Origin: Nemania diffusa
Taxonomy: Eukaryota > Ascomycota > Sordariomycetes > Xylariales > Xylariaceae
Reading direction: 5' to 3'
Length of the DNA stretch: 64,000 nucleotides
NCBI GenBank assembly: GCA_038501195.1
Contig: JBBPUQ010000011.1
Coordinates: 248,001 to 312,000 of the forward strand
Below, piece by piece: positions 28,293-56,507 of this stretch (its first letter is position 1; the number at the start of each line of letters is the position of its first letter). A program made the translations under genes and the position numbers. The notes under the pieces were generated by a model. The model was not told where the DNA came from. It was given only the letters and a program-made list of their open reading frames with translations, and did no database searches.

Positions 28293-28436
28293 TATGACGG
28301 TTGGGGGTGTTACTGTTCGTAGCTGGTCTGGTCTTTTTTTCTTCTCGAGAATTAAAGGTAAAAGGAGAAGTGTAGAACAAATTTGTGAAGTTAAAGAATG
28401 GGTTCTGAAGATTGAAACAAAACCATCCTCTCGCCA

Positions 28437-35124: not shown

Positions 35125-36097
35125 GCCATACGTACAGACCACCGACAAAACTATTCCTACCCCAATTTCCGTTTTTAGTTTTTAGTTTTTAAAAAATAAA
35201 TGTCGCAAGTACTATATACAGCAATAAATTAATTCAATTTATTATACAAAACAATATATATTGAGCTTAATTAACTTATAAGCTTAATTAAATTTATTTA
35301 ATATGACTGACTTGACTGACCTAGTTAACCTGGTTGACTTGGTTGGTTTGATTGATTTGACTAACCTGATTGATTTGACTGACCTAACTGACCTAGTTGA
35401 CCTAACTAGACCTGACCAGACCTGACTAGACCTGACTGACCTAGTTGACCTGACTGACCTAGTTGACCTAACTGGACCCGACTGAACTGGTTGATCTAGT
35501 TAACCTAACTAGGTCAGTCAATTCAATTAAGTCAATCAGGTCAATCAAGTCAATTAGGTCAATTATGTTATAAGCTATATATGTGATCTAGCCTATTGGG
35601 CGTACAGCTTAGTCAGTGTTACGTCAGGTGCATTTGCAGCGGCGTATAAAGTATTCTAGGTACACATATTAATATTAAGGTGAGGAAGAAAAGAATTGAC
35701 TGCAGGTGGAATTCCTACAACCAAGCCTTTTGTATGCGAGCCTCCTTATCTAATCTACAGACTTAACCTAGCTAAGCCACCACACTAGCCACTGCACTAG
35801 CCACACCAGGATCTAACCCGTAGAGCAAGAAGCCGTAACTGTCAGCCGTTGTTTTCTAGCACTTCAGTCGCAACTCTGTATCAGACTACAGCACATTTAA
35901 TTTACTTAAAAACTAAGTCAAATTATATTAATTAAGCTAATATTTAAATAGTTTAAATTTTAACTCTATTTTATAAGTAATATTAATAATATTAAATGCT
36001 AATTATTTTATGATGTTAGCTTATTTTTTTAAAAACTAAAAACTAAAACCAAAAATTGGGGAAAAATAGTTTTGTCGGTGGTCTGTACCTATGGCCC
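35125..36097. mobile_element. 973 bp TIR element without coding capacity
   Basis: Ends are inverted repeats of about 75 bp: GGGCCATA(C/G)GTACAGACC, then ACCGACAAAACTATT, CCCCAATTT and TTTTAGTTTTTAGTTTTTAA. The interior has no protein. It contains a minisatellite (35302-35567) and a segment, 35640-35860, that is repeated just outside the element at 36590-36735. A non-autonomous DNA transposon is the likeliest reading. The target-site duplication is not clear. Confidence 0.7.
35302..35567. repeat. internal minisatellite of the TIR element
   Basis: Short variants of TTGACTGACC and TAGTTGACCT repeat about 25 times. The last 60 bases carry the same unit inverted (GGTCAATCA), so the array can fold back on itself. 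Confidence 0.7.
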
Positions 36098-37438: not shown

Positions 37439-38359
37439 ATGCAATCCTCAACGAGTCGCTCGGGCGATGAAGATACCGAGCTGCTCATCAATGCAAATCC
37501 CCAACTGCAGACCTACTACTCCTCCCTCGAATCTCGAATAGGGTACAGGTTCTTGCTCGGGGGTACTAGGCATTTCGGGTACTATGAGGAGGACACTTAT
37601 TGGCCGTTTCCGTTTTCTAGGAGCCTTCGCAGGATGGAGGACAAGCTCGCTGAAGTGCTTTCTCTACCGCCCGGAGCTCAGGTCTTGGACGCCGGCTGCG
37701 GTGTCGGGCATGTAGCCTTGCACATGGCCCAAACCTACAAATTACGCGTCCAAGCTATCGATGTCGTGGACCACCATATCTATAAAGCCTCTCGCAATTT
37801 CAAGCAGGCTGGCCTACCCCCAGGCCAGCTCACACTTCGGAAGATGGACTACCATAATCTTGAGCCCCTGGCTTCCCAGTCCTTCGATGGTATATATACT
37901 CTCGAAACATTTGTTCATGCTACCGATCCCGAGGCAGTCTTGAAGGGGTTCTATCGCCTCTTAAAACCTGGTGGTCGCTTAGCCCTATTTGAGTATGACC
38001 ACACTGTCAACGCAACTTCGCCACAGGAGTTAGCTCGTACGATGGGCCAAGTGAATGAGTACGCCGCTATGCCTACGAATTCTATATCACACCCTGGAGT
38101 GTTCAAAAAGATGCTACAAGAGACAGGTTTCGAAGATGTCGTCGTTCGGGACTACTCGGCCAATATTGTCCCGATGACTCGCGTCTTTTTCCTGCTCGCA
38201 TTCATCCCATATCTATTTGTCCGCCTTTTAGGGCTCGAGCGGTGGTTTATTAATACTGTTGCCGGCGTCGGGTCCTACCTTGGCTATGGGCACTGGCATT
38301 ATTTGGCCATATCCGCTACAAAGCCAGGTAATTCAAGTGATGCGAAGAATTCAAAATAG
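37439..38359 (+). CDS. SAM-dependent methyltransferase, 306 aa
   Basis: Single exon from the first ATG. Motif I is VLDAGCGVGHVALHMA (about residues 82-97); AIDVVDHH follows as the acidic post-I strand, then SFDGIYTLETFVHA and LLKPGGRLALFEYD. Layout and ending (HYLAISATKPG) resemble the sterol-24-C-methyltransferase-like class I enzymes often found in fungal metabolite clusters. A hydrophobic segment near residues 245-275 (VFFLLAFIPYLFVRLLG) suggests membrane association. The frame stays open upstream for 17 codons with a hydrophobic sequence but without ATG, so an upstream exon cannot be excluded. The precursor-peptide gene begins 346 bases downstream on the same strand. Predicted to methylate C, N or O of a small molecule; the substrate is not inferable. 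Confidence 0.85.
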   Translation: MQSSTSRSGDEDTELLINANPQLQTYYSSLESRIGYRFLLGGTRHFGYYEEDTYWPFPFSRSLRRMEDKLAEVLSLPPGAQVLDAGCGVGHVALHMAQTYKLRVQAIDVVDHHIYKASRNFKQAGLPPGQLTLRKMDYHNLEPLASQSFDGIYTLETFVHATDPEAVLKGFYRLLKPGGRLALFEYDHTVNATSPQELARTMGQVNEYAAMPTNSISHPGVFKKMLQETGFEDVVVRDYSANIVPMTRVFFLLAFIPYLFVRLLGLERWFINTVAGVGSYLGYGHWHYLAISATKPGNSSDAKNSK

Positions 38360-38705
38360 ATGCGTAAATAGCGAGAGAGGGGACACTGCAGGTATTATAT
38401 TGTCATTTAACTTTTATCATTATTTTAAATCTAATAACAATGACAACTGGACTTCTATAAGGAGTCCTTGAATAATTATGTACTATTTAACTATATAAAC
38501 ATCAGAGTACTTAATTTTTTATTTTTTTTTGAAATGAAACAACTATAACACGACCGGTAGCTTAGTTTATTCATTTCATCATGCTAGTCTATATCAGGTT
38601 GTTATATCCGTGATATTGAGGTATATATAGTGCTGCTTCTTGCCGGTTACCATAACTGCCTTAATCACACAACCTTACTACTCTTAGCAAATTACTGAAA
38701 GCAAC

Positions 38706-38988
38706 ATGAAGTTCAACCAGCACATCCTCGCGGCCTTTGTGGCTCTCTTCGTTCTTGGTATCGCGGTTCCGCTTCCAAGTGAGGTAAATCAACCCCATTC
38801 CCTAGAAACTGTGAGGAGCTAATTATAGATAGGCCATTCTCGATGCACCTGCTCAGGCAATAGTGTATAAGACCGAGGTTAATCAACAAGCTGCGGCCAA
38901 GCGCACTGCTATTATTATCGACGCACCGGATAACCAAAAGCCCTACAAGACCGAGATTGACCAGCAGGCCGCTGAAAAGCGTGCATAG
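38706..38988 (+). CDS. Kex2-processed repeat peptide precursor, 77 aa (RiPP precursor candidate)
   Basis: Exons 38706-38783 and 38833-38988; the 49 nt intron runs GTAAAT to TAG in phase 0. The first 25 residues (MKFNQHILAAFVALFVLGIA onward) are a signal peptide. The rest is two units of about 25 residues, each ending in the Kex2 site KR: unit 1 ILDAPAQAIVYKTEVNQQ + AAAKR, unit 2 IIIDAPDNQKPYKTEIDQ + QAAEKR. Conserved positions are DAP, YKTE and QQAA. One tyrosine is invariant in each unit. Fungal dikaritin precursors (UstA, PhomA) and the epichloecyclin precursor GigA have the same build: signal peptide, repeats, KR cuts, an aromatic core residue. A methyltransferase lies directly upstream, an MFS transporter and a UstYa-like gene downstream. 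It could instead be a pheromone-like or wall peptide; no product is known. Confidence 0.75.
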
Positions 38989-40855
38989 ATCATTGGGGGA
39001 GACCCTAGCAAAAGAACGAGGGTTTGTGCGGTTGCGCCGTGGCGAGAAGCTGGTTGCGGCGACGAAGTAGAAGCGGATGTGGCTTTGGCGAAGGAATGGT
39101 GGCGAGGAGGCACTAAATCTATCGGTTAGCTTTATGGCATGTCTTAGGTAATTACAAGACACAGATCAACCAGTGAAAATCCTATCTATGATCTTTGCCC
39201 ATTGTAGACTGCGAGTCAAGTTCGTTATTCGCAGTAGGGGTCGTTCATGGACTAATTCAACCAATACACTGTAATATAGCTCCATAGTAGGGAGCTGGGG
39301 TATATAAGCATGACCTTATTCGCTTCTTGGTTCCTGGTGGAGATAAAGCCAGTGTAGCGTAGATAGGGGTTATTACCTTGCTTGGAGCCCCAGAAACCTA
39401 TTAACGAATATAGACTCAACTATGCTTTGAGAAAGCATAGATATACCACTAATAGGGGTAGTGAGCCTGATTATAGCACTAGGAGGAGAATATAAGACCC
39501 TTTGCAGATTTTTGAGAGCAGTGACTTCTTTCTGAATAAAACAGCAAGTACTATATACACATTTTTTCTTGGGTGCATCAGGCCACAGGACCACACCTTT
39601 TGAACCCAGAACGGTTTCTTTGTGTTGTCCAGTGGACCATAATTTTAAGGCAATCAGTCACAGGTAGTAGCCCTTTTACCCGCTACTCAATAAACCAAAC
39701 TACACAACAATTTCTCTAAACTGAAGATATCCAGGGGTTCCGTACACACGTATATACGTTCTAAAACATCTCTAGGGGTATGAATGCCATTATAAATTTT
39801 CGGACCTAAGTATTACCGGCAATTACCATTAGACCACCGGTAACTATTAGTGTGCACGGGTAGTACAAGAATATGTTTTTTTTAGTAGATTGTGCTATGG
39901 TTAAGTAGACCAATGAACGCAATTGTGTGATAGTGCGGGTAAACGAGTACTGAAGGGTAAAGAAAACCGCTAATTAGGCTTAGTTAAGCTCATCTGCGAT
40001 AGGTTGGTCTATTTATTTCTAACAGCCATTTTTAAGGGCTGTCCTAGTTAGCTACTCAGGCCGGCCCTCAAGATATAAACTCCGCCTGATGATTTGCTTT
40101 TCAAAGATTAAAAGCTGGAAATCTTTAGAAAATGATCCAGGCGTTAGTAGAGCACTTCATCGCATGACAACACATCGCAGCGAGAGTTCAAAACATATAA
40201 AAAGCTTGCATAGCCAAACCAAAGGCAAATCATGTAATAGCAATTAGGAATAAAGTCCGGAAATATTTTCAAAGCCCAATATCTGAGTTAAAACTGTAGG
40301 AATCAGAAATAACTACCATGCTAACATAGTTTAGGACACTCCCTCGTTTTATGACATCTAGGGTTATCATTGTCATACTCTTGCCATATTCCGTAGTTAC
40401 GGTAATCGTTTTCCTGGAAGCAGTAGTTTCTTGGAAGATTTCTGAAGGCAACGCTTTAAAACGATAAATACCGGATGTAGCTTAGTTTCAAATAATAATA
40501 TTAGAATGTCCTTTCCAGTAACTGATATGATGGAGATCAAAAGAATTCGAATCTGTAGACCTGTTTCAATGAAAACTTACCTTTTTATAGTGCCTACGAC
40601 TAATTACTATTTGGGGAATATCAGCAAGCGTGTGATTTAGCCTCGGTATCTACACCCCGATCGGTAAATGGATTGTGCGAAAGTAAGCCGCGGAAGTGGA
40701 CCGGGCTCCACGGTGTCGGCATTTGAGCTCCGGGTTATTCCCGGATTCTCCCGGGACCCTAGGCTCTGATTACCCACCGATTGTGTTTGTCATATCCTAT
40801 TCTGTTCTTGTATTCCCTCCGATATCACTTATCTCTAACGTTGGTAGAGGCAACA
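38989..40855. other. gene-free stretch with one dispersed repeat
   Basis: No gene supported. A copy of the dispersed repeat family lies at 39925-40135. Immediately before the MFS gene a short GC-rich block (40685-40760) may be promoter. Confidence 0.45.
39925..40135. repeat. dispersed repeat, copy 2
   Basis: Begins GTGTGATAGTGC, contains AATTAGGCTTAGTT and ends around AAATCTTTAGAA; same order of landmarks as 5418-5640. Confidence 0.45.
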
Positions 40856-42505
40856 ATGACCATGCAAACTCGAGCAATCCCCCTAATGTCCCCGCCGGCC
40901 GGCTTAGGAGTCGGGGCGGAATCGGAACTAGCCTCAGCTCCGACTCCCGTTTCGGCTTTGCTCCCGGTATCCCGCAAGAAGCAGACGATGGTCCTTCTCC
41001 CAGCCTTCGTGGCTATCGCCCTGACGATCGGCTACAACCAGACGTTCGGTGTCTTTCAGGAGTATTACCTCTCACCTAGCCAAGATATCCTAGTGCCCTC
41101 CCCGGCCTCACAAGCCTCGCCTCCGACAGCCCTGCTCGCCTTCGTGGGCACGCTGTGCTATGGGTTGACGTGGGCGGGCGGCATCCTTGTGAATCCCATT
41201 ATATCACGCATTGAGCATGGGACATGGGATCCGACCTCGCCCTCGAATCTGCGGTGGCGACGTAGAATACTGCGTCTCCTGACGCCGAAGACCATTACGG
41301 TTCTTGGCGTGCTCATGATGTCGGCAGGATTCGCGCTAGCTTCCTTTGCGCGTTCGATATGGCATCTCCTGCTTACGCAGGGGTTCCTAGTCGGTCTTGG
41401 GATGTCGCTTCTGTATTTCCCGCTCCTTGCTCCTGCACCTGAGTACTTCAATAACCATCGAGCAACGGCGATGGGTTTTGTGAGTGTCTTTGTCTTGAAG
41501 TTACAAAGTAAAACAGCACTAATTCATTACCTAGATTCTTGCGGGCGGCGGTGCTGGCGGTCTAATATTGTCACCCGTTATTAGAGCTCTTCTAAGCTCG
41601 GTCGGCGGTCGCTGGACACTCAGAATTTATGCTCTAATCAATCTCGTCGCCGGGTTACCGATTGCCTGGGTAGTGCCAAAGAGCCGGTTTGCAGACGTCT
41701 CGATCGCTGATACCTCGGAAAGGCGCCGAACTCACGTGTCTCGTGCTTTGGCCTTGAAGCCGACATTTCTTTTCTCAGCAGTAGCGGCATTTTTGCAGGT
41801 GAGTGCTTTCCGGTTGTTGCTTCCTTCCTAATACTATGCCAATTAAGCCTGGATCTTATGTAAAACCGGACGCATTGCAATTGAGCCTATATTCGCTTAG
41901 TTCATGTTAGAGTCCTTGGAACTGATAACCTACTCCAGGCTGCCGGCGCCCAACTCCCCCTTTCCTTCATTCCTTCTTATACTGTGGTTCTCGGGCAAAC
42001 CGCATCAAAAGGCGCCAACTTGCTCGCCATAAGCAACGCTGTGAACGCAGTGTCGCGCGTTCTAATTGGGTACGCCGGTGACTGCCTGGGGCGCCAGAAC
42101 ACCCTTGTCCTGACACTCCTCCTCGCCGCTACCAGTGTCTTCGCCCTATGGCTAACCAGCGTCCTGGCGGCCACCACAACATCGCTATCCCTCTGGATGG
42201 CTTTCATCGTGGTCTATAGTATCTCTGCCGGAGGGTACTATGCACTGTTTCCTGCCCTCATTGCCGAGGTTTTCGGTATCCGCCAGTACGCCGCTGTAAA
42301 TGCCTTTATTCTTTTCGTCAGGGGATTGGGGACGATGTTCGGAAGTCCTGTTGGTGGCCAGTTGCTTGGGAGCCCTGATGAGGGGGCTAAAGCGTATACT
42401 AATATCGCGTATTGGGATGGTGCGCTATTGATGGGTGCTACAGTCTGTTGTGTGGGAGTGCGGTGGGTGGACGGAAAGGACAGAGGGCAAAGGTGGATCG
42501 CGTAA
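40856..42505 (+). CDS. MFS transporter, monocarboxylate-transporter-like, 484 aa
   Basis: Exons 40856-41479, 41535-41798 and 41939-42505 with introns of 55 and 140 nt, both phase 0 (GTGAGT donors, TAG and CAG ends). After a 40-residue cytosolic tail about twelve hydrophobic segments follow, beginning TMVLLPAFVAIALTIGYNQ and GVFQEYYL, the opening expected of the fungal monocarboxylate-porter group. NAVSRVLIGYAGDCLGRQ marks the loop after helix 8, and the second half ends with FGSPVGGQLLG. Full length for the family, plasma-membrane location expected. Such transporters are common in metabolite clusters, where they export the product; here it lies between the precursor-peptide gene and the second methyltransferase. 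The second intron is unusually long. Confidence 0.85.
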
Positions 42506-42811
42506 CGCTGATTTCATCTGAGGATGTGAGATGCTGTCAAAACGGAAATTGTGTTAGGCAGCCCCTATTTCCCTCAGATACGGATGTCGCAATTCTTGGG
42601 GACATGGCACGCATAACAAATAAATCGGCGGCGGACGGTACTAGATTTTTACTATAGAGTCTTGTGCATCTGTCGTTCTGATCAAAGGCATATCAACACT
42701 TGGCACTGGCCACATATATGGCGTTGGGCTAAACTAACCTGGTATAGGGGGTAGAATGACATTCGTTGTGGCACGAGGCCTGCGATTATGACTAAGCCAG
42801 GGGTATATATA

Positions 42812-43640
42812 TCACTTTTCTTTCGTTCGTATATTGATCATAACAAGGTGCGGCAATGCTGTCCGCATACAGCTTCTCGCAATAACCAGGGACGTGTTGG
42901 AATGCAGACTGGTGACGACGCCGCTTAGGATGCGGGTATCAAGCATGGGGTCAAGTGTGCGCGGGCACGCGGCAACGATGGCTACGCCGACTTCGACGTA
43001 CGACCACACGAGAACATTCGTCTCGGTACCTATTAAATGTCAGTAGCCTTTGGGCGTATGGTTCAGAGCCAATACCATACCTGGAACATCACGAGCCGCT
43101 GGCTTGGTCTCCACAATGTCCTCCACAACGATGATGAGACGAGCAGTGCCCAACGCAAGGGAGCTATCGCATCCGACAATCAGAAAATAGACTTCAAGGA
43201 GCGTATGGAGCGAATGACATACACGAAACCGACGCTGGACTTGAGGGCCCCGAGTGCGAGCGCTGTCAAGATGGCAGGGATGGAGCTGAACTAATTATTA
43301 CTGGGGTACAGCACCACCCAAAGGAAACAAACCGCAGTGTGACGACAAATTTAATGACAACCACGGCTCGAGAAATGGTGTAGACGAGATGCTTGCATAC
43401 CACCGAGATCTGACTGCCGCATGACGAGTCGATGATGGTCCCAGTTGTCTGGGACAACACCGGTATGGTTACCAATGGTGCCCTACGACGCTCCTAAGTA
43501 ACGAATCAGTTGCCACGTAATGAGCTGTAGCGAGAACAAACACCATCAAGATCACGTACCATAAATGAGGAACTTAGGGAGTTGTTGTCGGCACCGGCGA
43601 CGGGGCTTGGCGCGGGCCGCTGATGACGGCGCGCGTCTAA
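42812..43640 (-). pseudogene. probable relic of a rhodopsin-domain membrane protein gene
   Basis: On the minus strand, fragments in shifting frames look like the second half of a fungal rhodopsin-domain (Pth11-related) protein: a stretch WLSDAIAPLRWALL, GVPAILTALALGALKSSVGF and near the end VWSYVEVGVAIVAACPRTLD followed by PML. These match the usual WxxVE, GxxxAC and PTLxP-like features of the last helices. No continuous or splice-connected gene could be built and several stops intervene. An intact relative is at 55014-56507. Confidence 0.4.
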
Positions 43641-44148
43641 ATATAGCTTGGCCGCGAGGGGGATACCTACCTAGTATTAGTGGAGGATTCCGATGCCCCG
43701 CCTTCCGTCATTCGGTCCGTTCCAAACCAGACAAGCGGGCCTATCAGGAGGCTTGTTGCCATGCATGGGGCAATCGGTACTCTGTACGCAGTATACAAGT
43801 AAGTACCTTAGATATGTACTCTGGTAGTATGTACTCCGTACCTCGGTAGCTAAGTCGACGGTTTGGCCGTGATCATTCTGCTTATTTAGATATCCTGTTA
43901 GAATCCTAGTGACGCCCTCCTGAGAACATGACCCCTTTCGACCCGAGATTACCAAATCATAGGGCTTAGCTAGATTGTTAGATTTTTAAATTATTCTCTT
44001 CCCCGGCATTTCAATCGCTGATTTACGTATTTTCCTATTTTCGCACACTCCATAATACAGACCCCTGAGATCTTCCCTCGTTAAATTCATCACATTTTAT
44101 CTTTTCCAACACACCCTATCATCTCCCCTCGCCATTCCTCTTTTAGTC
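43641..44148. other. intergenic region upstream of the second methyltransferase
   Basis: Promoter region; CT-rich just before the ATG, as usual in fungal genes. No further feature. Confidence 0.4.
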
Positions 44149-45176
44149 ATGGCGTCCGCACAACCCAGTATCAGTTATTCCGAGCCCAAATACGCCAAGC
44201 CGCAGGACCGCCTCAAGGTGCCCTTCTATACTGCTGATCTCGCGAGTCGCCTAGTTCCCGAGGTACGGAACAGAGCACCCACCCCTATTGCTCAACCGTG
44301 TCAAGGTCCTGACAGAGTCATGCCCTTAAACTGATCTGCCACAGACGCAAGATCTGCTCGAGAACTACAGCAAAATCCCGCGGGATCAGCAGCTAGAACA
44401 TATCCACCTCATCGTAAGTCGCCTCATCGCCGCATCTCGGCAGGGCCGGATGAGGTCAGACCAGAGACCAGAGCTGACGGTCCAGCCAGCGCGACAAAGC
44501 CTGGGACATTCGCGCCTACCCGTGCATCGGCCTCGGCGTGTGGCTGACGCCCCAGCTGCGCCGGCTGCCCGCGTACCCGGACATCCTGTCCCGCCTCAAG
44601 GGCGGCGCATCGCTCATGGACGTGGGCACCTTCATCGGGCACGACCTGCGCCGCCTAGTGTACGACGGCGCGCCCTCGGGGAACCTCTACGGCGTCGACA
44701 TCGTCAACCACTTCGACCTGGGCTATGAGTTCTTCCGCGATCGCAACAGCTTCCGGGCCGCCTTCATCGAGGCCGACTTCCTGTCCTCGTCCCAGGAGCT
44801 CGTCACGCTGCGGGGTATGATCGACATCGTTCTCGTGTCTCAGCTGCTGCATCAGTGGGACTGGGATGACCAGGTGCGGGCTCTGGAGACGCTTATCGGA
44901 TTCACGAGGGCGGGGTCCATGATTGTGGGGAATCAGATCGGGAATCACACCGCGCAGAGCATACTGGTTCCGGGGGACCTGTCGATCCACATTTGGCGGC
45001 ATAATACTGAGAGTCTTGGTGAGATGTTTCAGCAGGCTGGTAAGGCGACGGGGACGAAGTGGGAGGTGCAGGCTTGGCTGCGTTCTGCTGAGGACATGGG
45101 TTGGGATGACATGGCTCTTGGGTTTATGGAGCCGAATGTGTGTGTTATTGAATTCGTGGCTAATCGCGTATCGTAA
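44149..45176 (+). CDS. methyltransferase of the AusD-like type, 289 aa
   Basis: Exons 44149-44262, 44345-44413 and 44490-45176; introns of 82 and 76 nt (GTACGG/CAG, GTAAGT/CTGAC/CAG), all phase 0. The N-terminal part (YAKPQDRLKVPFYTADL, then QQLEHIHLIRDKAWDIRAYP) and the core (LMDVGTFIGHDLRRLVYDGA, NLYGVDIVNHFDLGYEFF, ASQLLHQWDWD-like) match the methyltransferases of fungal meroterpenoid and related clusters (AusD, TrtF, AdrK type). The usual motif I glycine-rich loop is present as DVGTFIGHD, not the common DLGCxxG, so one cysteine is replaced. Cytosolic O- or carboxyl-methylation of a metabolite is likely. It ends 150 bases from the UstYa-like gene, which is convergent. Confidence 0.85.
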
Positions 45177-45327
45177 AGGAGGAAGTGAGGACGCACAAGA
45201 GGTTAACCTTTAAATACTCATATAGATATCTTCAATAGAGACTGAAGTGATAAACCCTCCCACGTCAGCGCTAGAAAATGGGCACGATTTATTAATATAT
45301 AACTACTTTGAAGCACTTAACTCCGCT

Positions 45328-46499
45328 CTACAATATATCTACCACGGAAAAACTTCTCACACCTCTTTTCAACCCTAAGCATCCCCCACCCTCAGCCCCT
45401 GCACTAGGTAGATCCCGATCCGGCGAGCCCGGCGGGCAATTCACGTACTCATCCAGCGTCTCGTGCAGCGAATCGTCGTCATCGGGTCGCGCAAAACACG
45501 CCGAGTGCTTGACCCCCCAGCTCTCAAGAGGCTCCCAGCTGCGACACATACGCTCGGGCGCGGCGGTCGCGAGCTCCTGCTTTCCGCGGAACGGGAGCAC
45601 GGTGTCGCCGGCGTCGTACAGCACGCCCGAGCGGATATCTGCTAGGCAGTGGAAGATGTGGCCGGCCGTAGGACCTCCTGTCTCGCCGCGCTGGCGGATG
45701 CGTACGTAGGCGTATATGTTCTTCTGGGTTGTGTTAGCCGTGAAGAGGCGACTAGCTAGAAAGAATTTGGGTTGCATACTAGACAGTGTAGAATATGGTA
45801 GCTCTCCAGCCTGTACAGTCCTTTAGACGCGTCCCAGGGGAATGTCTGGGTGTCTCCCAGGCCGGCGTCTTTGGGTAGCTAGATGATGCCAGCGTCGATG
45901 TTCATCTCGTCCCACAGATTGTCTAGCGCTGTCATGTTGGACGTGTCAGTTCATGAGGTCTCTTCGGTGAAGATGTGGTGCTGATTCGTTCTCAAGCCCC
46001 CTGTTGATTGATATAGTAGAAGTAAGCAGGCAGATATGTACTACCATGTACCTCTAGACATGGATGTAGGTAGAGTAGGGATGTAGGTAGAGTAGGGATG
46101 TAGGTAGAGTAGGGATGTAGGTAGAGTAGGGATGTAGGTAGAGTAGGGATGTAGGTAGAGTAGGGATGTAGGTAGAGTAGGGATGTAGGCAGAGTAGGGA
46201 TGTAGGTAGAGTAGGGATGTAGGTAGAGTAGGGATGTAACGTGAGTGGAGAAGACATACCTATTAGTGGTGGGCCGCAGGCGGTCCTCCGAAGGGAGTAC
46301 CCGGCTTGTATGCCGTTGCATATCAAAGAGGTGATGAGGAGGCCGACGAGTGCAAGCCAGAGATAGTTCCTCGCGTTCTCCGGATGCGCCGGCGCTGGTT
46401 CTAACTCTGACTCTGCCTGCTTTAGAAAGCGAAGCCCGTCGGCTCTGAGGAGAGAGCATGGCCGTCACACCGGTACGACGAGCCGGTGGGCGCATTCAT
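45328..46499 (-). pseudogene. UstYa-like (DUF3328) gene with two stops and a frameshift
   Basis: Minus strand. Exon 1 (46499-46260) encodes a short tail and a single transmembrane helix (YLWLALVGLLITSLICNG). Exon 2 (46000-45780) contains ALDNLWDEMNIDAGII, LPKDAG, FPWDASKGLYRLESYHILHC. Exon 3 (45723-45328) contains GHIFHCLADIRSGVLYDAGD and PERMCRSWEPLESWGVKHSA. YHILHC and GHIFHC are the two HxxHC motifs of the UstYa family, whose copper-dependent members oxidatively cyclise dikaritin peptides. Introns are 259 and 56 nt and keep phase. Defects: exon 1 needs one extra base near 46436 to connect ATG to the helix, and exon 2 has TGA (about 45942) and TAG (about 45882) in frame. All catalytic motifs survive, so inactivation looks recent, or these are sequencing errors. 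Confidence 0.75.
46064..46233. repeat. 17 bp minisatellite, ten copies, inside an intron
   Basis: Ten units of ATGTAGGTAGAGTAGGG, perfect except one T-to-C change in the eighth. The array fills 170 of the 259 bases of intron 1 of the UstYa-like gene, where the transcribed strand is pyrimidine-rich. Confidence 0.95.
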
Positions 46500-48060
46500 A
46501 TCGAGTGTTTAATTCTGGGTCTTGCAAATTGCACAGAGGCAACAAGCTAAGCGCCTTGGGCCCGGTCCCTATACCGCCGCCTGTCTTTACTGCTCGCTCC
46601 ATAGATATGATCAAATACCAGCAGCTTACAGCGCGCTGTAGTGTTGCTTACAACATCGCTGTCTCATGAGTAGTGTATTATGGCGGGTGAACAAGCACTA
46701 AGAGTCAAGGGGAAATTATTCATTAACCTTAGCCTATCCAATCTATGATGAACTTTTCTATCTATTCCTGACAGCCCACTCTGAATAATACCTCGGCTAG
46801 TGAAACAGAACGAGCAAGGTACCTATACCGCACTCTAGAGGACTCGCCGCTGTTATCTCGAAATTTAAAGAGAAAAGTGGGCAACTCAGCGGCAACAATG
46901 GTGTCGATCACCTATATGGGGCTTCCGCAAACATTTGGATGTCAGTGATCTGGGTCATCTAATTCAATGAATTAGTCATATTGCTCACATGCTAGCTTCT
47001 ATTGTGGAATTAATACGTTCAGGGGATGTTGGACAAGCTTTGTAACTAACGATTAATTTAGTTTTTGTCTGTCAACAATTGATTCCAAGTGGCTTATAAT
47101 GTTGCTTGATGCTCATAATTATTAGCTTTCGGCCGCTACATTTGAAAACAGCACAATAAGCAGTTGTGAATGAAGGCGTATCAGGTTAACGAATTTTAGT
47201 GTTTATTTGTAGATTGCCATTTACTAGTAGATTAGATTCCATTGGGGTGACATTATTTGCTAAGTGGCAAGCTAAAAAGCAATCGCTGTCGTTGTTGTCG
47301 GATCACACTATCCAAACTACTGTTAGGCGCGATAACAATCTGTTCCGGGAGCTAGGGAGGTATATGAAGGTGCCTTCAAAACCCCCAAAGACCCTTGAGA
47401 AACTCAGGGCTTAGTTCTCCATTATGTTGGTTTATAATTAGGTATATGTACACCTGGTCTTCTTTGCGAATCCATTCACCATGAATCCATTCACCACGAA
47501 TCCATTCACCATGGCTTTATTGTTTGTGGACAGTTTGGGCTAATAAATGAAAGTACTTTGGTAAATTATTATGATCAATTCAAAAATGGACAGGCTTGAA
47601 TGTAAGGGTTAACGTCAGGCACCTAATCCCTTAATATACTTGTGTCTCCTTAATATACCCTTTTCTATGTTTCTCTTCGTACATCTTTCAAGGAAGATCA
47701 CGTTGTATTACATAATAAGACCAAAGGTTTCAGAATGGGCAGCTCTCACGAGTAACGTGGAATATAGCAAACCCTCGCATATCATTATATAGTGGCGGTA
47801 GAAGTAACTCTCGTGCCTAAATGCAAGTGAACTCATTCACTTCGGGTTCAGTCCTACGATGTTTGTGCTGATTCCTGCTCTCGACTTAGAGTTACTGTAT
47901 ATTTGTTTTGGCAGTACACATTCACTAGAGTTCATGATATGTGCTAACCATTGTGGTTAAAACAAACTTGTAAGTAACTTCGACCACCACCAACAATGCC
48001 TGCCGCATTCACCTGCGAGGCATGCTGTTAAAATATTTCCCACTTTGGCATTCACTGAAT
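46500..48060. other. gene-free stretch with possible coding fragment
   Basis: 47199-47414 has a 71-codon frame of protein-like composition (WQAKKQSLSLLSDHTIQT, NLFRELGRYMKVPSKPP) without signal or start context, perhaps a transposon or gene fragment. A 15 bp unit GAATCCATTCACCAT repeats three times at 47468-47512. No complete gene. Confidence 0.4.
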
Positions 48061-48090
48061 CCTGTCTGTGCACAGGCTGGTTCTATATAA
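48061..48090 (+). promoter_or_regulatory. shared promoter block of the HEPN-like paralogues, copy 2
   Basis: CCTGTCTGTGCACAG, five bases, then TTCTATATAA, about 170 bases before the ATG at 48260; identical 15-mer and spacing to 28437-28466 (minus). The upstream TTCACTGAA-like bases are also similar. Confidence 0.6.
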
Positions 48091-48259
48091 AGGGGAAAAG
48101 ATTCCTTCGTTTTAATCTTCACAACTACTTCCTTACTATCACACATATCCTCCCCATCTAGCATTTCACTTCTCTTCTTCGAGCAAAACGTTTCAGATCA
48201 ATTATAAATACCGCCAACATCATACCGTCAACATCACACTATCAACATCATATCACACA

Positions 48260-49558
48260 ATGAAGTACACAAGCCAACACTCAGATCGCCTCGCCTCGGC
48301 TTTAAAGGAGGTAGAAGCATTGAAACAAGAGAACGCAAGGCTTAACAAGACAATTGCTGCGTTACAAAGTAAGACGCTACACAAAAACATATCATCAACA
48401 CCCTCCTCAAAAAAGGCACCTACAAGCAACAATGCCTCATTGCACTTTACACGATCCACAGCATCTTCGCGGAGCAAAGAGACGCATAAGTTTCAAAGCT
48501 CTAGGGGTAGTGGAGAAAAAGCTCACTCTGCTAGAGCTACATATGAAAGTGCATATAACGGACGGAAATATACATACAAGGATGGAGTGCCCATCCCAGA
48601 TACCATTCATTCTTGGGAGCGCCCTGGTTACATGGTCGAGACGGAGGCTGTCAGCCAGCGGAAGCATGAAAAACTGTTGGACAGGCTTGAGCGCTGGAAA
48701 AGGCAGGAGGCCATGAAGCGTAGGGTATCTAAAACCCTGCCCAGCCCACCATCCTCGGAAAAGACCTGTGTAGAGGATCAGCCCTGGGACGAGGGGTGGG
48801 ATGGGGACCCATATGCGGATGCGAGAGAAAAGGCAGAGGCATACATAGAAGACCTGGCTATAGTCCCACACGAGGAGCTGGCTGAGAGATCAGGCCTTGA
48901 TCGTGACGCCCAATTCCAGCGGGAATATGTGGGAATTAGTAGTAAGAACGGTCTTGGCTATCTCCAAAAGGCCTTTGAAATCGTCCAAGAGGCGGTATAT
49001 GAGGTAGGCAAGACTGGTGCCCCTGGCTGGGGTCTATTCGTCGACGGCCCGCACCTTGTGCGGCTCGGTAGAAACGAGCTACTGAGCTGGATGGGCGAAC
49101 ACCCAAATCCCAGTATGGGTCGTAACGGGTCGACTGCGTGCCAGATACGACGTGCGCTGCTGGACGTTGTGCCACTTCGAAACGCAATCAGCCACCCTAG
49201 CAGCAGTTACTTTCGGTCTCCGCGACGTCTGGAATCTTTGCTAAAGTCAGCCCAAGAAGTTGCTGTGATCCTGGTGGACGAAAAGCGTGCTTTCGAACTC
49301 AGAGAACTTCGTGATAAGTTGTGCGATGAGGCGAACAGGTCGGTACAAGATATTGTGGACCTATACCATCTAACGCTTCAGCCGGATGGTCCCAAGATAC
49401 AATGTCAATACCACCACGAGGCGATGTTCATCGACATTTTACATTCAAACTACAATATTTTTGACGATGATCAAGTTCAAGCCATCGCCAACGTTTGGGC
49501 TAGCCAGAGAGATCGGGATGACGCATGGGAGAGAAGTGTGTTCAGGGACGGGCCATAA
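48260..49558 (+). CDS. coiled-coil protein with HEPN-like RNxxxH motif, 432 aa (paralogue 2)
   Basis: Single exon preceded by a long CT-rich leader. Residues 1-40 (MKYTSQHSDRLASALKEVEA onward) are a coiled coil closely matching paralogue 1 at 26925-28292. The middle third differs, being shorter and lacking the Glu/Asp run. The C-terminal domain from about 220 (YVGISSKNGLGYLQKAFEIV, LGRNELLSWMGEHPNPSMG, LRNAISHP) again has the Rx4H pair, Arg307 and His312. Selection has kept this motif and its surroundings while the linker diverged, which argues that the C-terminal domain is functional. HEPN proteins are mostly RNA-binding or RNA-cleaving and many act in stress or defence; that role here is inference. 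No membrane segment or signal peptide. Confidence 0.8.
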   Translation: MKYTSQHSDRLASALKEVEALKQENARLNKTIAALQSKTLHKNISSTPSSKKAPTSNNASLHFTRSTASSRSKETHKFQSSRGSGEKAHSARATYESAYNGRKYTYKDGVPIPDTIHSWERPGYMVETEAVSQRKHEKLLDRLERWKRQEAMKRRVSKTLPSPPSSEKTCVEDQPWDEGWDGDPYADAREKAEAYIEDLAIVPHEELAERSGLDRDAQFQREYVGISSKNGLGYLQKAFEIVQEAVYEVGKTGAPGWGLFVDGPHLVRLGRNELLSWMGEHPNPSMGRNGSTACQIRRALLDVVPLRNAISHPSSSYFRSPRRLESLLKSAQEVAVILVDEKRAFELRELRDKLCDEANRSVQDIVDLYHLTLQPDGPKIQCQYHHEAMFIDILHSNYNIFDDDQVQAIANVWASQRDRDDAWERSVFRDGP

Positions 49559-49716
49559 AGGAGGAATATGAGTTATATTACAAAACAGAATTATATTACA
49601 AACTAATACTACCCAAACCATATGACACAAAGTTCCAGTATGCGGGTTTACACCTGAAATTAAACGTGCTAGTAGACCTGATGTAGAAATTGTCGATAAT
49701 CCTAAGTGTACTCGTA

Positions 49717-49826
49717 TTGTGATAGTGCTTGTGGCTGTGCCACAAGTCTTCTGCTGGTCCTCCTCAACAGATCCTATTGTTTCTCATGAATAAAAGCCAG
49801 AAATCTCTAGAATTGCTATTATCTTC
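49717..49826. repeat. dispersed repeat, copy 3 (short)
   Basis: Begins TTGTGATAGTGC and ends around AAATCTCTAGAATTGC; lacks the middle of the other two copies. Confidence 0.35.
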
Positions 49827-50647
49827 GGCATGTGAATGAAGCATTCGTCATTGGTTCGTGACGCGGTGCTATCAGACATTATAACCGATATGTAACACGT
49901 TGTAGCAATTATCTCGCTTCGGGATCGCAATCCTACGTTGAATTTGCGGTTGTGTCACATTTAATTCATTGATTTTTAACCTCTAAGTGCTGAAGTAAGT
50001 GCATATACCATTGAAATAGAAGAAGGTAGAGCAGTCGAGTCGGTTGCTGATATAGTCTAGCAGGTTAGTCATCGCGTGTGTTAATACAGGTGGCAGTACC
50101 GATGGAACCTACAGATTTTGGTTGAAGAGATGATTCTCTATGTAGAAAATTAATGAATAACTTATTATACTTTATATTATAGCGTTGAAACCGTGCAGAC
50201 ACATATTCATATATATATGCACGCATATATATGTTGAAGCTATTGCATATTAGCTCCCCTCGAATGCCCAATCGCGGGGTGTTAAAATACTACCTCACAC
50301 CACTTCCAAGACACTAACTAGCATTTTCCCGAGCCGAAGCAGGAATACTACGTCAATAACCGTCAAAATGTCGGCGAAAAGTATATGCACCAGCCATTTC
50401 GATTACCCGGTGGGAATTCGGAGTCTCCAACCCCCATTGGTGGCCCCCACGACCGAGACCAGGTATCACGGGTTGGAGAGAGGCCGCTTCGCATCATATT
50501 TATTGTGAGCCGCGAGACCTACATGCTAGATATCGCGGAGCTATGTTTCAAAAGTAGGTAAATGTGTATCTAATCTACTCCTGCATTATCTGATAATGGC
50601 AAGTGGTATAACTCTCCGTCCGGATCCGATCGGAGTCGCTGACTACC
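49827..50647. other. gene-free stretch upstream of the FAD monooxygenase
   Basis: No gene. An alternating TATATATG/CATATATA run lies near 50205-50235. The last part is the likely promoter. Confidence 0.4.
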
Positions 50648-52175
50648 ATGTAGGCTCATACAAAGTCACCCGTGACCCTCGAGATCGCCATCGTCGGTGC
50701 TGGCCTCAGTGGCATGGCGGCAGCCATCTCGAGTGCATTAGCTGGTCATAACGTGACTGTATTCGAATCCGCGCAGAAACTACAAGAGGCATGTTGGCTT
50801 ATTAGTATTCCGTAGGGCATCTACTAACATGACAGCTTTAATGCAGCTCGGCGCAGGATTACAAATAACTCCGAATTGCTCACGTTTACTGCAGAGATGG
50901 GGGTTGCCAGATAGTTTTTGGGAGACCATTGCCGAGCCAAGATATCTTGCCGTTCATCGGTATTCCGATGGGAAGCTGCTAGCGCTAGACGAGGGGTTTA
51001 ACGACAAAATGCGCTCGAGATATGGGGCGCCTTTTGCCGGGGTCCATCGGGTGGACTTGCATTTAGCTCTCGCCAAGCGGGCCGAGCAACTAGGCGTCAA
51101 GCTAAGACTAGGGCAAAGAGTAGTTAATATCGACTTCTCAATCCCTTCAATCCAGACAGCAGATGGAATCGAAGTAACGGCTGACCTGATCGTTGCCGCG
51201 GATGGAATCTGGTCGACATGTCGGAATCTTGTACTTGATATTAAAGACTTTCCCTGGCCTACGGGCGACCTTGCTTATCGGATTGCCCTAACTATCGACG
51301 AGATCGACGACCCCGAGTTGCGGGAAATGGTGCAGAAGCCAGCAACAAATTTTTGGATTGGCCCTAGATCCCATGTCGTGGCATACTCGATGCGCGGCGG
51401 TACTATGTATAACATTGTCCTACTCGTTCCTGATGATCTCCCCGAGGGCGTCAGACGACAGGCCGGCTCTGTCGAACAGATGAGAACCTTATTTGAGGGA
51501 TGGGATCCAATACTGAGCCGATTCCTGAAGCTCGTAAAGTCAGTTAAGAAGTGGAAGCTAATGCACCGTGAGTCCGAGACATCTGGACTGTGAACTTAGC
51601 TTTCCTATAACTTACCAGGTCCTCAGGTCGAGAACTTCCTTCGTGGGTCAACGATAAGTCAAACTGTGTCTTCGTGTAAGTCGTTTGTCATCACCTCGTC
51701 TCCCATGAAGATGATACTCATCGGATGGTAGAGGAGACTCGTGTCACCCAATGCTACCTTATCTAGCCCAAGGGGCGAACTCTGCGATAGAGGACGGTGC
51801 GGTTCTAGGCCTCCTTCTTGGGTCGATTAAATCACGTGAACAATTACCAAAAGCCCTCCAGCTGTACCAACAACTCCGCAAAGCTCGTGGCGATGCGATT
51901 GTGAAAGAAACATTCAAGCAGGTATGTAGACTGGTTCAAGCAACTCTGGTAATTCTCGGTAGTCTGACGCAGTGTTATCCTAGCGGGACTCGTTCCATAT
52001 GCGCAATGGCCCCGAACAGGAAGCCCGAGATGAATTGTTCCTTTCCCAGCTTGGGAAAGAGGTAAAGGGGCCATTCCCTAGTCGCTGGACTTGCCCCCAG
52101 GTCCAACCGTGGTTATACAGATATGATGCATATGAGGAAGTGGAAGACGCTATTTCGAAGAACCCATTTGAGTAG
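50648..52175 (+). CDS. FAD-dependent monooxygenase, 430 codons, stop at codon 2
   Basis: Exons 50648-50788, 50847-51567, 51627-51675, 51732-51921 and 51984-52175. Introns of 58, 59, 56, 56 and 62 nt-class keep phase; the first begins GC (GCATGT), a GC-AG intron. The protein has the FAD-binding IVGAGLSGMAAAISSALAG, the LIVAADGIWS (DG) motif near residue 180, and GDSCHPMLPYLAQGANSAIE, the GD motif that closes over FAD. It belongs to the salicylate-hydroxylase-like group A monooxygenases, which hydroxylate or epoxidise aromatic or polyketide substrates using NAD(P)H. The only suitable start is ATG at 50648, followed at once by TAG; no other in-frame ATG precedes the FAD motif. Unless an upstream exon exists, this copy is not translated in full. 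Convergent with the P450. Confidence 0.75.
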
Positions 52176-52514
52176 AATGCTACGTGCCGTAAGTAAAGAG
52201 TTCTAACATTGATAAAGTAGGCCATACGTAAAGCTCATGGTTGAAGGCGCTGACTCCCCAATTATATCTTATGATGCCTAGTGTCCCACCGTGGCAACAT
52301 TGAGCTTTTGCATATTGCACCATAACACAATACATCACCGAATATTGTCACCCTTAAATATATCCAGCGACTTGTGAACCTTTGATGTAGCAAACTACAT
52401 TTGCCGAATACAGGTCTTCGCGGCAAATTCTACGTGGCTTAATTACGTAGATGTTTTCAAGCTTGATCGGGGAACGGAAATAGGTTGATGAAACACACGT
52501 TGGCTTCTAGATTC
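52176..52514. other. convergent intergenic region
   Basis: Shared 3' region of the monooxygenase and P450 genes. No other feature. Confidence 0.5.
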
Positions 52515-54280
52515 TTATGCTACAGTATCTAATTCATCACAGAAGTTTCCGCGGGGGTGGAACAACAGATTTGGCCCTTGGTGATGTGCCGAAAATCTAT
52601 CGTAAAGCTGAAATTCATCCCCGTGGCTTTTGTCGCCCGCGGGCACTTCAAAATCAAAATACCATAGCATCTTGGCTAGTGTAAGACTCACTTCAAGATA
52701 GGCCATGGGCTTCCCTGCACAACTGCGCGAGCCAATCAAAAAAGGGGCAAAGGCGTCATTCATCACCTTCCTCGTCCCCTCTTTGGAGTCTTCTAGCCAC
52801 CGCTCAGGCCTAAACGTAAATGGATCGGAGAAATATTGCTGATTATGGTGAAGACTGTAGATGCTTACGGCAACCTGTGTACCTTTGGGGATAACATGCC
52901 CATCGATGATGAGCGGTTCTTCATCTGCTTCCTTTTCGGCGGGCGCTAGCTCTCGCCACAGCAGGCCCGTGACTGGAGGACTGATCCGCAGAGCTTCGTC
53001 TATGCATGCACGGAGGTACTTGCACTCGGCAAGACGAGGCCCACCACAAATACCGACACCAGACTGGAATGTCGAGCGGATCTCTGTAGCTAGCCTCTTG
53101 TACTGTTGAGGGCTGCGGGATAAGTAGAACAGCAAAGCACATAACGCTGCTGCTGTCGTTTCTCCACCTATTCAGATTGAAAGGTTAGTTAAAGTACCTT
53201 AGCAAAGAATGGGGCTCGGATTCTACAAACCAGCTGGAAAAAAGAAGACAGCTTCTGTCACGAGGTCCAGTCGATCAGGTTTTTGATCCTCTTTCCCCAT
53301 AGATTTGGCCATGAATGAACATAAATCATGTTTTGCGTGGAAAGGTTCACTTAACCTCGCGCTGACCATGCTGTTTAATGCCGCGAAAAACCTGTCGCGT
53401 AAGCTATTGGGGATATTATCAGCAATTCGCTGGTGAAGCCGCCACTTCATGAGCAATGGAAAGTTCATGCAGACATTAATGCGTAGATCACCGATCGAGA
53501 TGGCTTTTGGTAAGAAGCGGTTCGTCGGATCAGTCTGCAAGTTGAGACTACGGCCAAAACCGAGTTGGGCAGCCGTGTCATAGCTCAGATGACGGCAGAT
53601 TGGTGTCATGTCTACTAAAGCACCGGTCTTAGACATGTTGAACAGATGCTTGATAAAGGTGTCGATTTCCTGCACCATGGTGGGTTCGAATGTGCGCATA
53701 GACTGCTCCGATATGACTTGTCCAACCACTTTTCTTTTATAGCGGTGCAGTTCCCTGTCAACCACCGTAAATATGTTGAATATGCCTGGTCTGTGTTGCG
53801 CTGCCCTATAGGCATGAGATTTGACAACTCTGTCATTTTGGTATATGTCTGTTCTTGTAAGCTGTGGCGCCTTTGCCATGTTCTTATGCGCGACGTACCT
53901 CGGAGGGCTGTCGCCGTGTTGAATACTAGCCTGTCAGGCGCGATCCTCACAACAGGCCCTTCACATTGACATCAACATTGTGGCAGCTATGGGGGGACAT
54001 ATGCGGATGCTCTCACTTACCATATCGAATATGATTTTGGTACACTTTTAAGTGCGTGTTCTGTGCAAGCGCGCAGGCTCCGCCGTACACGTGTGATAGC
54101 TTCGCAACAAATGGGCCTGGAAATCTTCGAAGTGGATGCAACAGAAGACGATAGCTTAAGATAAGAAGAGCCTGGGTGAGTAGGATAGATTAGCAGTTGG
54201 TTATAAACTATGATGCGAATTCTCCCTACATATAACGCGAACGCGGAGGCGAGAGCTGACAGGATAGATAATGATGCCAT
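52515..54280 (-). CDS. cytochrome P450 monooxygenase, 510 aa
   Basis: Minus-strand exons 54280-54230, 54171-54021, 53958-53899, 53848-53231 and 53167-52515; introns of 58, 62, 50 and 63 nt are all in phase. Exon 1 (MASLSILSALASAFALY) and the start of exon 2 (ALLILSYRLLLHPLRRFPGP) give the membrane anchor and proline hinge. The I-helix oxygen motif is AGGETTAAAL, spliced across intron 4. ExxR appears as EALR, the meander as FRPERW, and the haem loop is FLIGSRSCAG with the ligand Cys. All key residues are intact and the length is normal, so it is an ER-bound haem monooxygenase. Fungal P450s of this kind oxidise metabolites; with the FAD monooxygenase 340 bases away it likely belongs to one pathway. 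It is intact, unlike that neighbour. Confidence 0.9.
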
Positions 54281-55013: not shown

Positions 55014-56507
55014 ATGTTGGACGTTGCTGATCTCCTCGCTTCATTACCACCCGAAGCTAGAGAGGTCGTTCTCAATGGGCCTGCTCACGTCCCTCCTCCG
55101 GGAGTCATCCCAAACTTTGACAACCCACCAAGCCAGAACAGCCTAGTTATCGGCGTTCTCACCACTGGGTACTTTATAGTTGTTATTCTATTCTTTGCTC
55201 GTGTTTACTCTCGATTGGTTTGCCTTAAAAGAGTCCACATTGAGGACGGTATGATAACATCGATAAATCTATTTGAAGAACTATCCTAACGTGTACCAGG
55301 TTTAATAGTAGCTGGATTTGTGCGTTTTCTAGGCCTTTACTTACTTCTACAGTTGTCAGACGTACGCCTTTCTAATATCACTTGTGATGCTAGGGGACCC
55401 TCACTGCATATGCTTGGTGCTGCTACTATGCACTTAACAAGCCTGGATTATTTGTTCACCAGTGGGACATAAGGCTCAAGGACTTATCCCAATTCCTCTG
55501 GGTAAGAGACACTGATCTTTTTAACATTCATTAATATGTCTAAGTCATGACAGATCCTCTACCTTGGAATCAATTTCTACGGTGCTACTCTCCTATCACT
55601 CAAACCAGCAGTGTTACTTGATTGGTCCCGAACCTTTGTTCCCCGCGGCACTCGTAATACTTTCTGGTGGACATGCCACATACTTTTAGCGGTAAACATA
55701 CTATTTTATGGATCGATAAAGATCGCATCGAACCTATCTTGTCAACCCCATAACAAGATATGGGATAAGACGGTTCAGGGCACATGCCTCAATGAAGGCA
55801 TCATATGGACGGCTTACTCTTGCCTGAACTTTGTATCGGACGTTATCATCTTGATCCTCCCTCAGAGGGTCATCTGGGGGCTTAAGCTATCAAGGACAAA
55901 GAAGGTTGGAGTCTCGATCGTATTTGCCTTTGGTCTGCTGTAAGCACACTCCTTTCCTTAGGGCTAATTTCTAATCCTTTCTGGTCGGTTATAAGGCCCA
56001 CGTCTAACGGTCTTTTCTAGTGCTTGTATAGCTGCTATTCTCCGAATTGTTACCAGCATCCGGTACTTAGAGTCTACGGATAAAACTTTCACCGTTTCAG
56101 CTGTGGCTATGTGCTGCTGGGCAGAGATGGTATTCCTCTTCGTGGTAGCGTGCGTACCCTCGGTTCCCGCAGCCACGAAAGGATTACGAGCAAGTAAGGC
56201 CGTTGAGTCATTTAAGCTGTGGGCTTCGCACCATGGCGGGAAATCTCAGTCGAGCGGGACATATACTCAACCAAGCGCCCCAGAACAAGCTGCATATGAA
56301 CAAGTTGACGAATATACTCTCAAGGCTTCTAGGGATGGCCAAAGCGACACCAATCTTCATCATTCGAATAAGCTCCCCATAAACACTTCAGCTATCACTC
56401 TAACGACTCACGTGGTCACTGTTACAGAAGACCATGATCCAAATACAGCGACTCTTGGGAATCAACACCAGCACCCATGGATTACGTATAATGACCCCCC
56501 AGTGTAG
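55014..56507 (+). CDS. rhodopsin-domain integral membrane protein, 411 aa
   Basis: Exons 55014-55248, 55300-55319, 55394-55501, 55554-55939 and 56021-56507; four introns of 51-81 nt keep phase, including a 20-base micro-exon (GLIVAGF). Seven hydrophobic helices are seen: VIGVLTTGYFIVVILFFARV, then LIVAGF/TLTAYAWCC, FLWILYLGINFYGATLLSL, FWWTCHILLAVNILFYGSI, a Cys-containing outer loop (LSCQPHNKIWD), SCLNFVSDVIILILPQRVIW, VGVSIVFAFGLLACIAAI, and VAMCCWAEMVFLFVVACVPS. This is the fungal rhodopsin-domain family related to Pth11-like receptors but without a CFEM domain. The C-terminal 110 residues are a hydrophilic Thr/Gln/His-rich tail, probably cytosolic. Plasma-membrane receptor-like role is inferred from the family. 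A dead relative lies at 42812-43640. Confidence 0.85.

What the first reader, a model, noticed from the sequence alone, without database searches (positions are those of the whole stretch)
37439..54280. Candidate dikaritin-like RiPP gene cluster
Seen: within 17 kb lie a secreted two-repeat Kex2 precursor, a UstYa-like gene with both HxxHC motifs, two methyltransferases, an MFS transporter, an FAD monooxygenase and a P450. Known: ustiloxin and phomopsin clusters combine a UstA-type precursor, UstYa-family oxidases, methyltransferase, MFS, flavin monooxygenase and P450. Inference: this is a cluster of that type with an unfamiliar core sequence. Spacing is loose and a HEPN-like gene intervenes, so membership of the last two genes is least certain.
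Basis: partly seen in the sequence, partly recalled or inferred. Interest (0 to 1): 0.9.

Follow-up and report, generated by a model that had tools for sequence, protein, structure and literature searches.

The report
Fungal peptide cluster, broken cyclase gene
A fungal gene for a small secreted peptide made of two repeats sits beside methyltransferases, a transporter and what look like the broken remains of the enzyme gene that normally closes such peptides into rings, so this is most likely a decayed copy of a known kind of peptide cluster rather than a working new one.

Summary
The precursor gene (38706-38988, one 49-nt intron, 77 aa) looks real: its two KR-ended repeats differ at most synonymous sites yet keep their residues outside five variable codons (pS 0.81, pN 0.11; whole repeat 0.74, 0.24).

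The UstYa-like gene (about 45328-46464, minus strand) has both HxxHC motifs but looks dead. Its conserved exon carries two in-frame stops (TGA 45953-45951, TAG 45881-45879). By inspection I found no intron that removes the second and keeps the frame, and its membrane exon has no in-frame ATG. An intact paralogue exists elsewhere in the genome.

Both methyltransferases, the MFS transporter and the P450 have complete models. The flavin enzyme resembles benzoate 1-hydroxylases, not class B UstF1/F2. No tyrosinase match lies in the window.

Best reading (0.55): the remnant of a dikaritin-type locus (Kex2-repeat precursor plus UstYa) that has lost its own cyclase. Any product today would be linear, or cyclised in trans. 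Expression, metabolites and related species could not be tested.

The parts
37439..38359 (+). MT1, class I SAM methyltransferase, 306 aa, single exon
   Evidence: Methyltransf_11 2.3e-19; model complete
38706..38988 (+). Precursor, 77 aa: hydrophobic N-terminus and two KR-ended repeats; exons 38706-38783 and 38833-38988
   Evidence: pS/pN of the repeats
40856..42505 (+). MFS transporter, 484 aa, three exons
   Evidence: Spliced model; MFS_1 5.5e-33
44149..45176 (+). MT2, methyltransferase-like, 289 aa, three exons
   Evidence: Spliced model; Methyltransf_25 only 0.024, below cut-off; no PDB match at 0.01
45328..46464 (-). UstYa-like pseudogene: membrane exon to 46260, exon 2 about 46001-45780, intron 45779-45724, exon 3 from 45723
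   Evidence: Two HxxHC motifs and two in-frame stops; PF11807 pieces at 17.1 and 17.0 bits; paralogues at 34 and 37%
45951..45953 (-). In-frame TGA in exon 2 of the UstYa-like gene
45879..45881 (-). In-frame TAG in exon 2 of the UstYa-like gene, inside the block that aligns with a paralogue
46062..46238 (.). 17-bp minisatellite, 10.4 copies, in intron 1 of the UstYa-like gene
50660..52175 (+). Flavin monooxygenase, FAD_binding_3 family, 426 aa from the Rossmann motif on; start codon unresolved; one GC-AG intron in the model; membership of the cluster doubtful
52515..54280 (-). Cytochrome P450, 510 aa, five exons; membership of the cluster doubtful
   Evidence: Spliced model; p450 1.2e-59

Best explanation
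This is the remnant of a dikaritin-type RiPP locus. A secreted precursor with two Kex2 repeats was, I infer, once cut at KR in the Golgi and modified by a membrane-bound UstYa-family oxidase encoded three genes away, with methylation by one or both neighbouring methyltransferases and export by the MFS protein. In the sequenced genome the oxidase gene is disabled (shown at the level of sequence). If the precursor is still expressed, Kex2 would now release linear peptides of about 24 residues bearing the YKTE motif, possibly methylated, or cyclised only by another UstYa protein acting in trans (inferred). The flavin enzyme and P450 beyond 50 kb most likely serve another function, of aromatic-acid type by family of the former (inferred).
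For: Precursor: canonical intron, KR-ended repeats, pS 0.81 against pN 0.11 outside five codons. UstYa-like gene as third neighbour (MFS, MT2, UstYa), as in the published survey (3.09 genes on average). Rough arithmetic: its 52 matches merge into 29 loci in 55.6 Mb, so a chance UstYa neighbour within 6.3 kb is about 0.7% likely, ignoring that metabolite genes cluster. In the same genome a precursor lies beside 2 of 12 UstYa loci fetched. Disablement: two in-frame stops, no ATG in the open membrane-exon frame, and loss of a Cys after the second motif that both aligned paralogues have. An intact paralogue aligns across the same block. MT1, MFS, MT2 and P450 models are complete.
Against: Only two repeats; both published surveys required three or more. 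The five variable codons were left out after seeing the data, and the control segments of L038 were chosen by their conserved motif, so the two low pN values are not independent tests. An intact 77-codon precursor is no evidence of present function. The TGA could be skipped by another 3' splice site (my reading). Sequencing or assembly error cannot be excluded. MT1's only paralogue at 1e-5 lies at a place with no KR-repeat precursor in the 30 kb scanned. A precursor was missing at 10 of the 12 other UstYa loci, so UstYa genes here mostly stand without one that my scan can see. No expression, metabolite or related-species data.
Confidence: 0.55

Rival explanations
1. The precursor is a linear Kex2-processed peptide (hormone-, pheromone- or effector-like) that never had a cyclase; the UstYa remnant, methyltransferases and transporter are chance neighbours.
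For: In the published survey 78% of KEP genes have no DUF3328 neighbour (22% do). MT1 and MT2 have paralogues at places unrelated to this cluster. The UstYa gene is dead while the precursor reads open.
Against: A chance UstYa neighbour at 6.3 kb is about 0.7% likely by rough arithmetic. The repeats contain Tyr, which is commoner in KEPs with DUF3328 neighbours (65.6 against 38.2%).
Confidence: 0.2
2. The cluster works: the stops are an assembly error, are recoded in the mRNA at some stage, or another UstYa protein of the genome acts in trans on the Kex2 peptides.
For: The other gene models are complete. About 29 other UstYa loci exist in the genome. Both HxxHC motifs and the third exon are kept.
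Against: Two separate stops, no ATG in the membrane-exon frame and loss of a shared Cys make a single error unlikely. The nearest other UstYa match, C11:244626-244868, is about 42 kb from the precursor and its frame holds two TAA.
Confidence: 0.15
3. The UstYa remnant belonged, with MT2 and perhaps the flavin enzyme and P450, to a pathway that is not of RiPP type; the precursor is unrelated.
For: UstYa-family proteins also occur in polyketide and nonribosomal peptide clusters (PMC12048977 section 22). The flavin enzyme is like benzoate 1-hydroxylases.
Against: No long ORF of the size of a polyketide or peptide synthase is in the listed ORFs of the window (largest 1248 aa, without such a Pfam domain). 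The precursor is the nearer partner in gene order.
Confidence: 0.1

Closest known systems
Dikaritin clusters (ustiloxin, phomopsin, asperipin-2a)
   Same: Signal-like N-terminus, KR-ended repeats with Tyr, a UstYa-family gene a few genes away, methyltransferase and MFS genes
   Different: UstYa gene disabled; two repeats against 16 in UstA and eight in PhomA (passages of PMC6514808); no YXIX core; no tyrosinase match in the window; flavin enzyme of FAD_binding_3 type, whereas UstF1/F2 are class B
Kex2-processed repeat proteins (KEPs) without cyclase
   Same: Secreted precursor with repeated units between KR sites
   Different: A UstYa remnant three genes away; two repeats, so outside the criteria of both surveys
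The precursor-UstYa pair at C3, about 5.69 Mb, of the same genome (L038)
   Same: Kex2 repeats, pS much above pN, UstYa match nearby
   Different: Eight KR sites, another conserved core, UstYa match about 2 kb away
4-hydroxybenzoate decarboxylase 8gsm and decarboxylative vanillate 1-hydroxylase 8x38 (for the flavin enzyme)
   Same: Best solved relatives, E 7.5e-63 and 7.6e-48 over 245-246 residues of the query
   Different: Substrate and role here unknown

Membership tests
Dikaritin RiPP cluster | Precursor with signal peptide and Kex2-cut repeats | tested here: met
   signal peptide by eye only, no predictor run
Dikaritin RiPP cluster | UstYa-family (DUF3328) cyclase gene that can work | tested here: not met
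   Gene present with both HxxHC motifs but with two in-frame stops and no ATG in the membrane-exon frame; Pfam pieces below cut-off
Dikaritin RiPP cluster | Tyr in the repeated core | tested here: met
   YKTE in both repeats; not YXIX as in ustiloxin and phomopsin
Dikaritin RiPP cluster | Tyrosinase, in the ustiloxin and phomopsin subtype | tested here: not met
   26 exon-level PF00264 matches in the genome, none in C11:248001-312000
Dikaritin RiPP cluster | Cyclic peptide product | not testable with these tools
   No metabolite data
Kex2-processed repeat protein (KEP) | Three or more repeats between dibasic sites (survey criterion) | tested here: not met
   Two repeats; criteria in PMC7329392 section 13 and passages of PMC6339444
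Kex2-processed repeat protein (KEP) | Repeated units of a secreted protein separated by KR | tested here: met

The most novel reading that the evidence does not exclude
The locus was kept after its cyclase died: an RiPP precursor with a YKTE repeat that my library search did not find in print now yields linear, possibly methylated secreted peptides, a reversal of the linear-to-cyclic path proposed for KEP evolution.
Probability: 0.12. Interest if true: 0.6.

Novelty: new member of a known kind. Interest (0 to 1): 0.33.

Why it matters
It adds a precursor with a repeat for which a full-text search of the held PMC library with three YKTE-bearing strings gave no paper (supplementary tables of the KEP surveys could not be searched). 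If confirmed it is a case where a KEP outlives its cyclase, which bears on whether cyclic KEPs can revert to linear ones. It also shows genome miners that two HxxHC motifs do not make a working UstYa gene.

Tried and rejected
A homology search of the precursor in the large protein set could not be made (switched off), so nothing is known from related species. I first suspected a frameshift in the P450; a 50-nt GT-AG intron explains it. I suspected a broken start of the flavin enzyme, since the nearest in-frame ATG is followed by a stop; an upstream exon cannot be excluded, so this stays open. RIP: with the thresholds I recall (TpA/ApT above 0.89 and the second index below 1.03) no 2-kb step between 36 and 54 kb meets both, 38001-40000 being at the border (1.12, 1.03); the control locus L037 (0.98, 1.02) does meet both, so RIP is not shown. 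A second copy of the cluster was not seen: paralogues of UstYa, MT1, flavin enzyme, P450 and MT2 lie elsewhere; I searched no paralogues of the MFS protein. The precursor's second exon has no other match in the genome at E<=1.

Full report
Setting. The window is C11:248001-312000 of a 55.6-Mb, 16-contig genome, by gene content a filamentous fungus (inference). The protein homology database was switched off and no related fungal genomes are at hand, so comparisons are with the same genome, Pfam, the PDB and papers.

Precursor. Exons 38706-38783 and 38833-38988 with a 49-nt intron encode 77 residues: a hydrophobic N-terminus (signal peptide by eye) and two units ending in KR that share DAP and YKTE-QQAA-KR and differ in five residues between them. 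Over the whole repeat pS is 0.74 and pN 0.24 (Fisher test on rounded counts 0.0013); without the five variable codons, left out after seeing them, 0.81 and 0.11. As a yardstick, six 9-codon core segments of the canonical precursor in L038, chosen by their motif, give 0.77 and 0.12. So the residues of the repeats were once held by selection; this does not show that they are held today. The second exon has no paralogue in the genome at E<=1 and the protein has no Pfam match.

Chance. A six-frame scan for KR-flanked repeats found this ORF alone in the window. In 267,417 letters of L001-L046, partly overlapping, looser thresholds gave re-fetched copies of it, the L038 precursor and one antisense frame of that; L047 gave one more precursor exon. 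Of 12 other UstYa loci fetched with 9 kb or more each, 2 have a precursor nearby (L038, L047) and 10 have none that the scan sees. These are 12 of 29 loci, my merging of the 52 matches within 10 kb.

UstYa-like gene. On the minus strand a membrane exon ends at a GT donor (46260/46259). Intron 1 holds a 17-bp minisatellite. Exon 2 carries HILHC (45797-45783), a 56-nt intron follows (45779-45724), and exon 3 carries HIFHC (45660-45646). Exons 3 and 2 match only PF11807, at 17.1 and 17.0 bits, under the cut-off of 25; the membrane exon matches nothing. The whole-genome family search did not list the gene. Exon 3 matches other places of the genome at 34% (C7, frame open) and 37% (C10, one TAA in the frame), and weakly a third at 25%; the C7 paralogue, L021:3325-4185, passes PF11807 at 65.9 bits. 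Exon 2 has two in-frame stops, TGA 45953-45951 and TAG 45881-45879, the second inside the block that aligns with that paralogue. By inspection another 3' splice site could skip the TGA; I found no GT-AG intron that skips the TAG and keeps the frame. The open frame of the membrane exon has no ATG before the donor (frame 0). A Cys after the second motif, present in both aligned paralogues, is missing. I conclude pseudogene, with sequencing error as the main caveat.

Other genes. MT1 (306 aa), MFS (484 aa), MT2 (289 aa) and P450 (510 aa) have complete models. MT2 is weak in Pfam (0.024, below cut-off) and has no PDB match at 0.01. MT1's only paralogue at 1e-5 is on C7 among genes that do not look like RiPP genes to me (by eye), with no KR-repeat precursor in L017-L019. 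The flavin enzyme is FAD_binding_3 (4e-22), with 4-hydroxybenzoate decarboxylase and vanillate 1-hydroxylase as nearest solved relatives; UstF1/F2 are described as class B, and that FAD_binding_3 enzymes are class A is recalled. Its start is unresolved.

Papers. PMC7329392: abstract, sections 6 (part 1), 7, 9, 13. PMC12048977: abstract and section 22. Passages of PMC6339444, PMC10512285 and PMC6514808. Other papers were seen as listings only. PMC4822579, on the phomopsin cluster, is not held. From these: KEPs cyclised by UstYa homologues are called dikaritins; 22% of KEP genes have a DUF3328 neighbour, at 3.09 genes on average; UstYa proteins also serve pathways that are not RiPPs.

Judgement. 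Precursor, UstYa remnant and gene order together favour a decayed dikaritin-type locus (0.55). Rough sums: about 30 loci times 13.8 kb over 55.6 Mb gives 0.7% for a chance UstYa neighbour at this distance, ignoring that such genes cluster. Two stops in about 270 UstYa codons and none in about 1,156 codons of precursor, MT1, MFS and MT2 has a chance of about 0.04 if all decay alike; so either the other genes are kept for some use or the loss is recent. The finding is a new member of a known kind of modest interest; a precursor kept as a linear peptide after losing its cyclase remains open (0.12).

Noticed in passing
14001-16000: A 2-kb block at 8-9% GC, full of short AT repeats, in a window otherwise mostly at 34-61% GC.
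   Followed up: no
26925-28436 (-) and 48263-49558 (+): Two paralogues (45-49% identical by piece); a genome search at 1e-5 found only these two. R-x4-H string and coiled-coil look are my own reading.
   Followed up: partly
46062-46238: 17-bp minisatellite, 10.4 copies, 98% matches, inside intron 1 of the UstYa-like pseudogene.
   Followed up: partly
L038:6536-7159 (C3, about 5.69 Mb): Canonical Kex2-repeat precursor with eight KR sites about 2 kb from a UstYa match; core around ISFKYPF.
   Followed up: partly
L047:6930-7217 (C8, about 0.138 Mb): Second Kex2-repeat precursor exon, three KR sites, close to UstYa matches.
   Followed up: no
L024:6626-6868 (C11:244626-244868): UstYa match 3.1 kb left of the window whose frame contains two TAA; introns or decay not resolved.
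   Followed up: partly
30349-31376: Interrupted frames that read to me like a glycosidase; not tested against a library.
   Followed up: no
55551-55943 and neighbouring exons: Fungal rhodopsin-domain gene; a similar-looking protein lies at L024:3720-4709 (by eye).
   Followed up: no
35349-35565: Degenerate 9-bp tandem repeats over about 200 bp.
   Followed up: no
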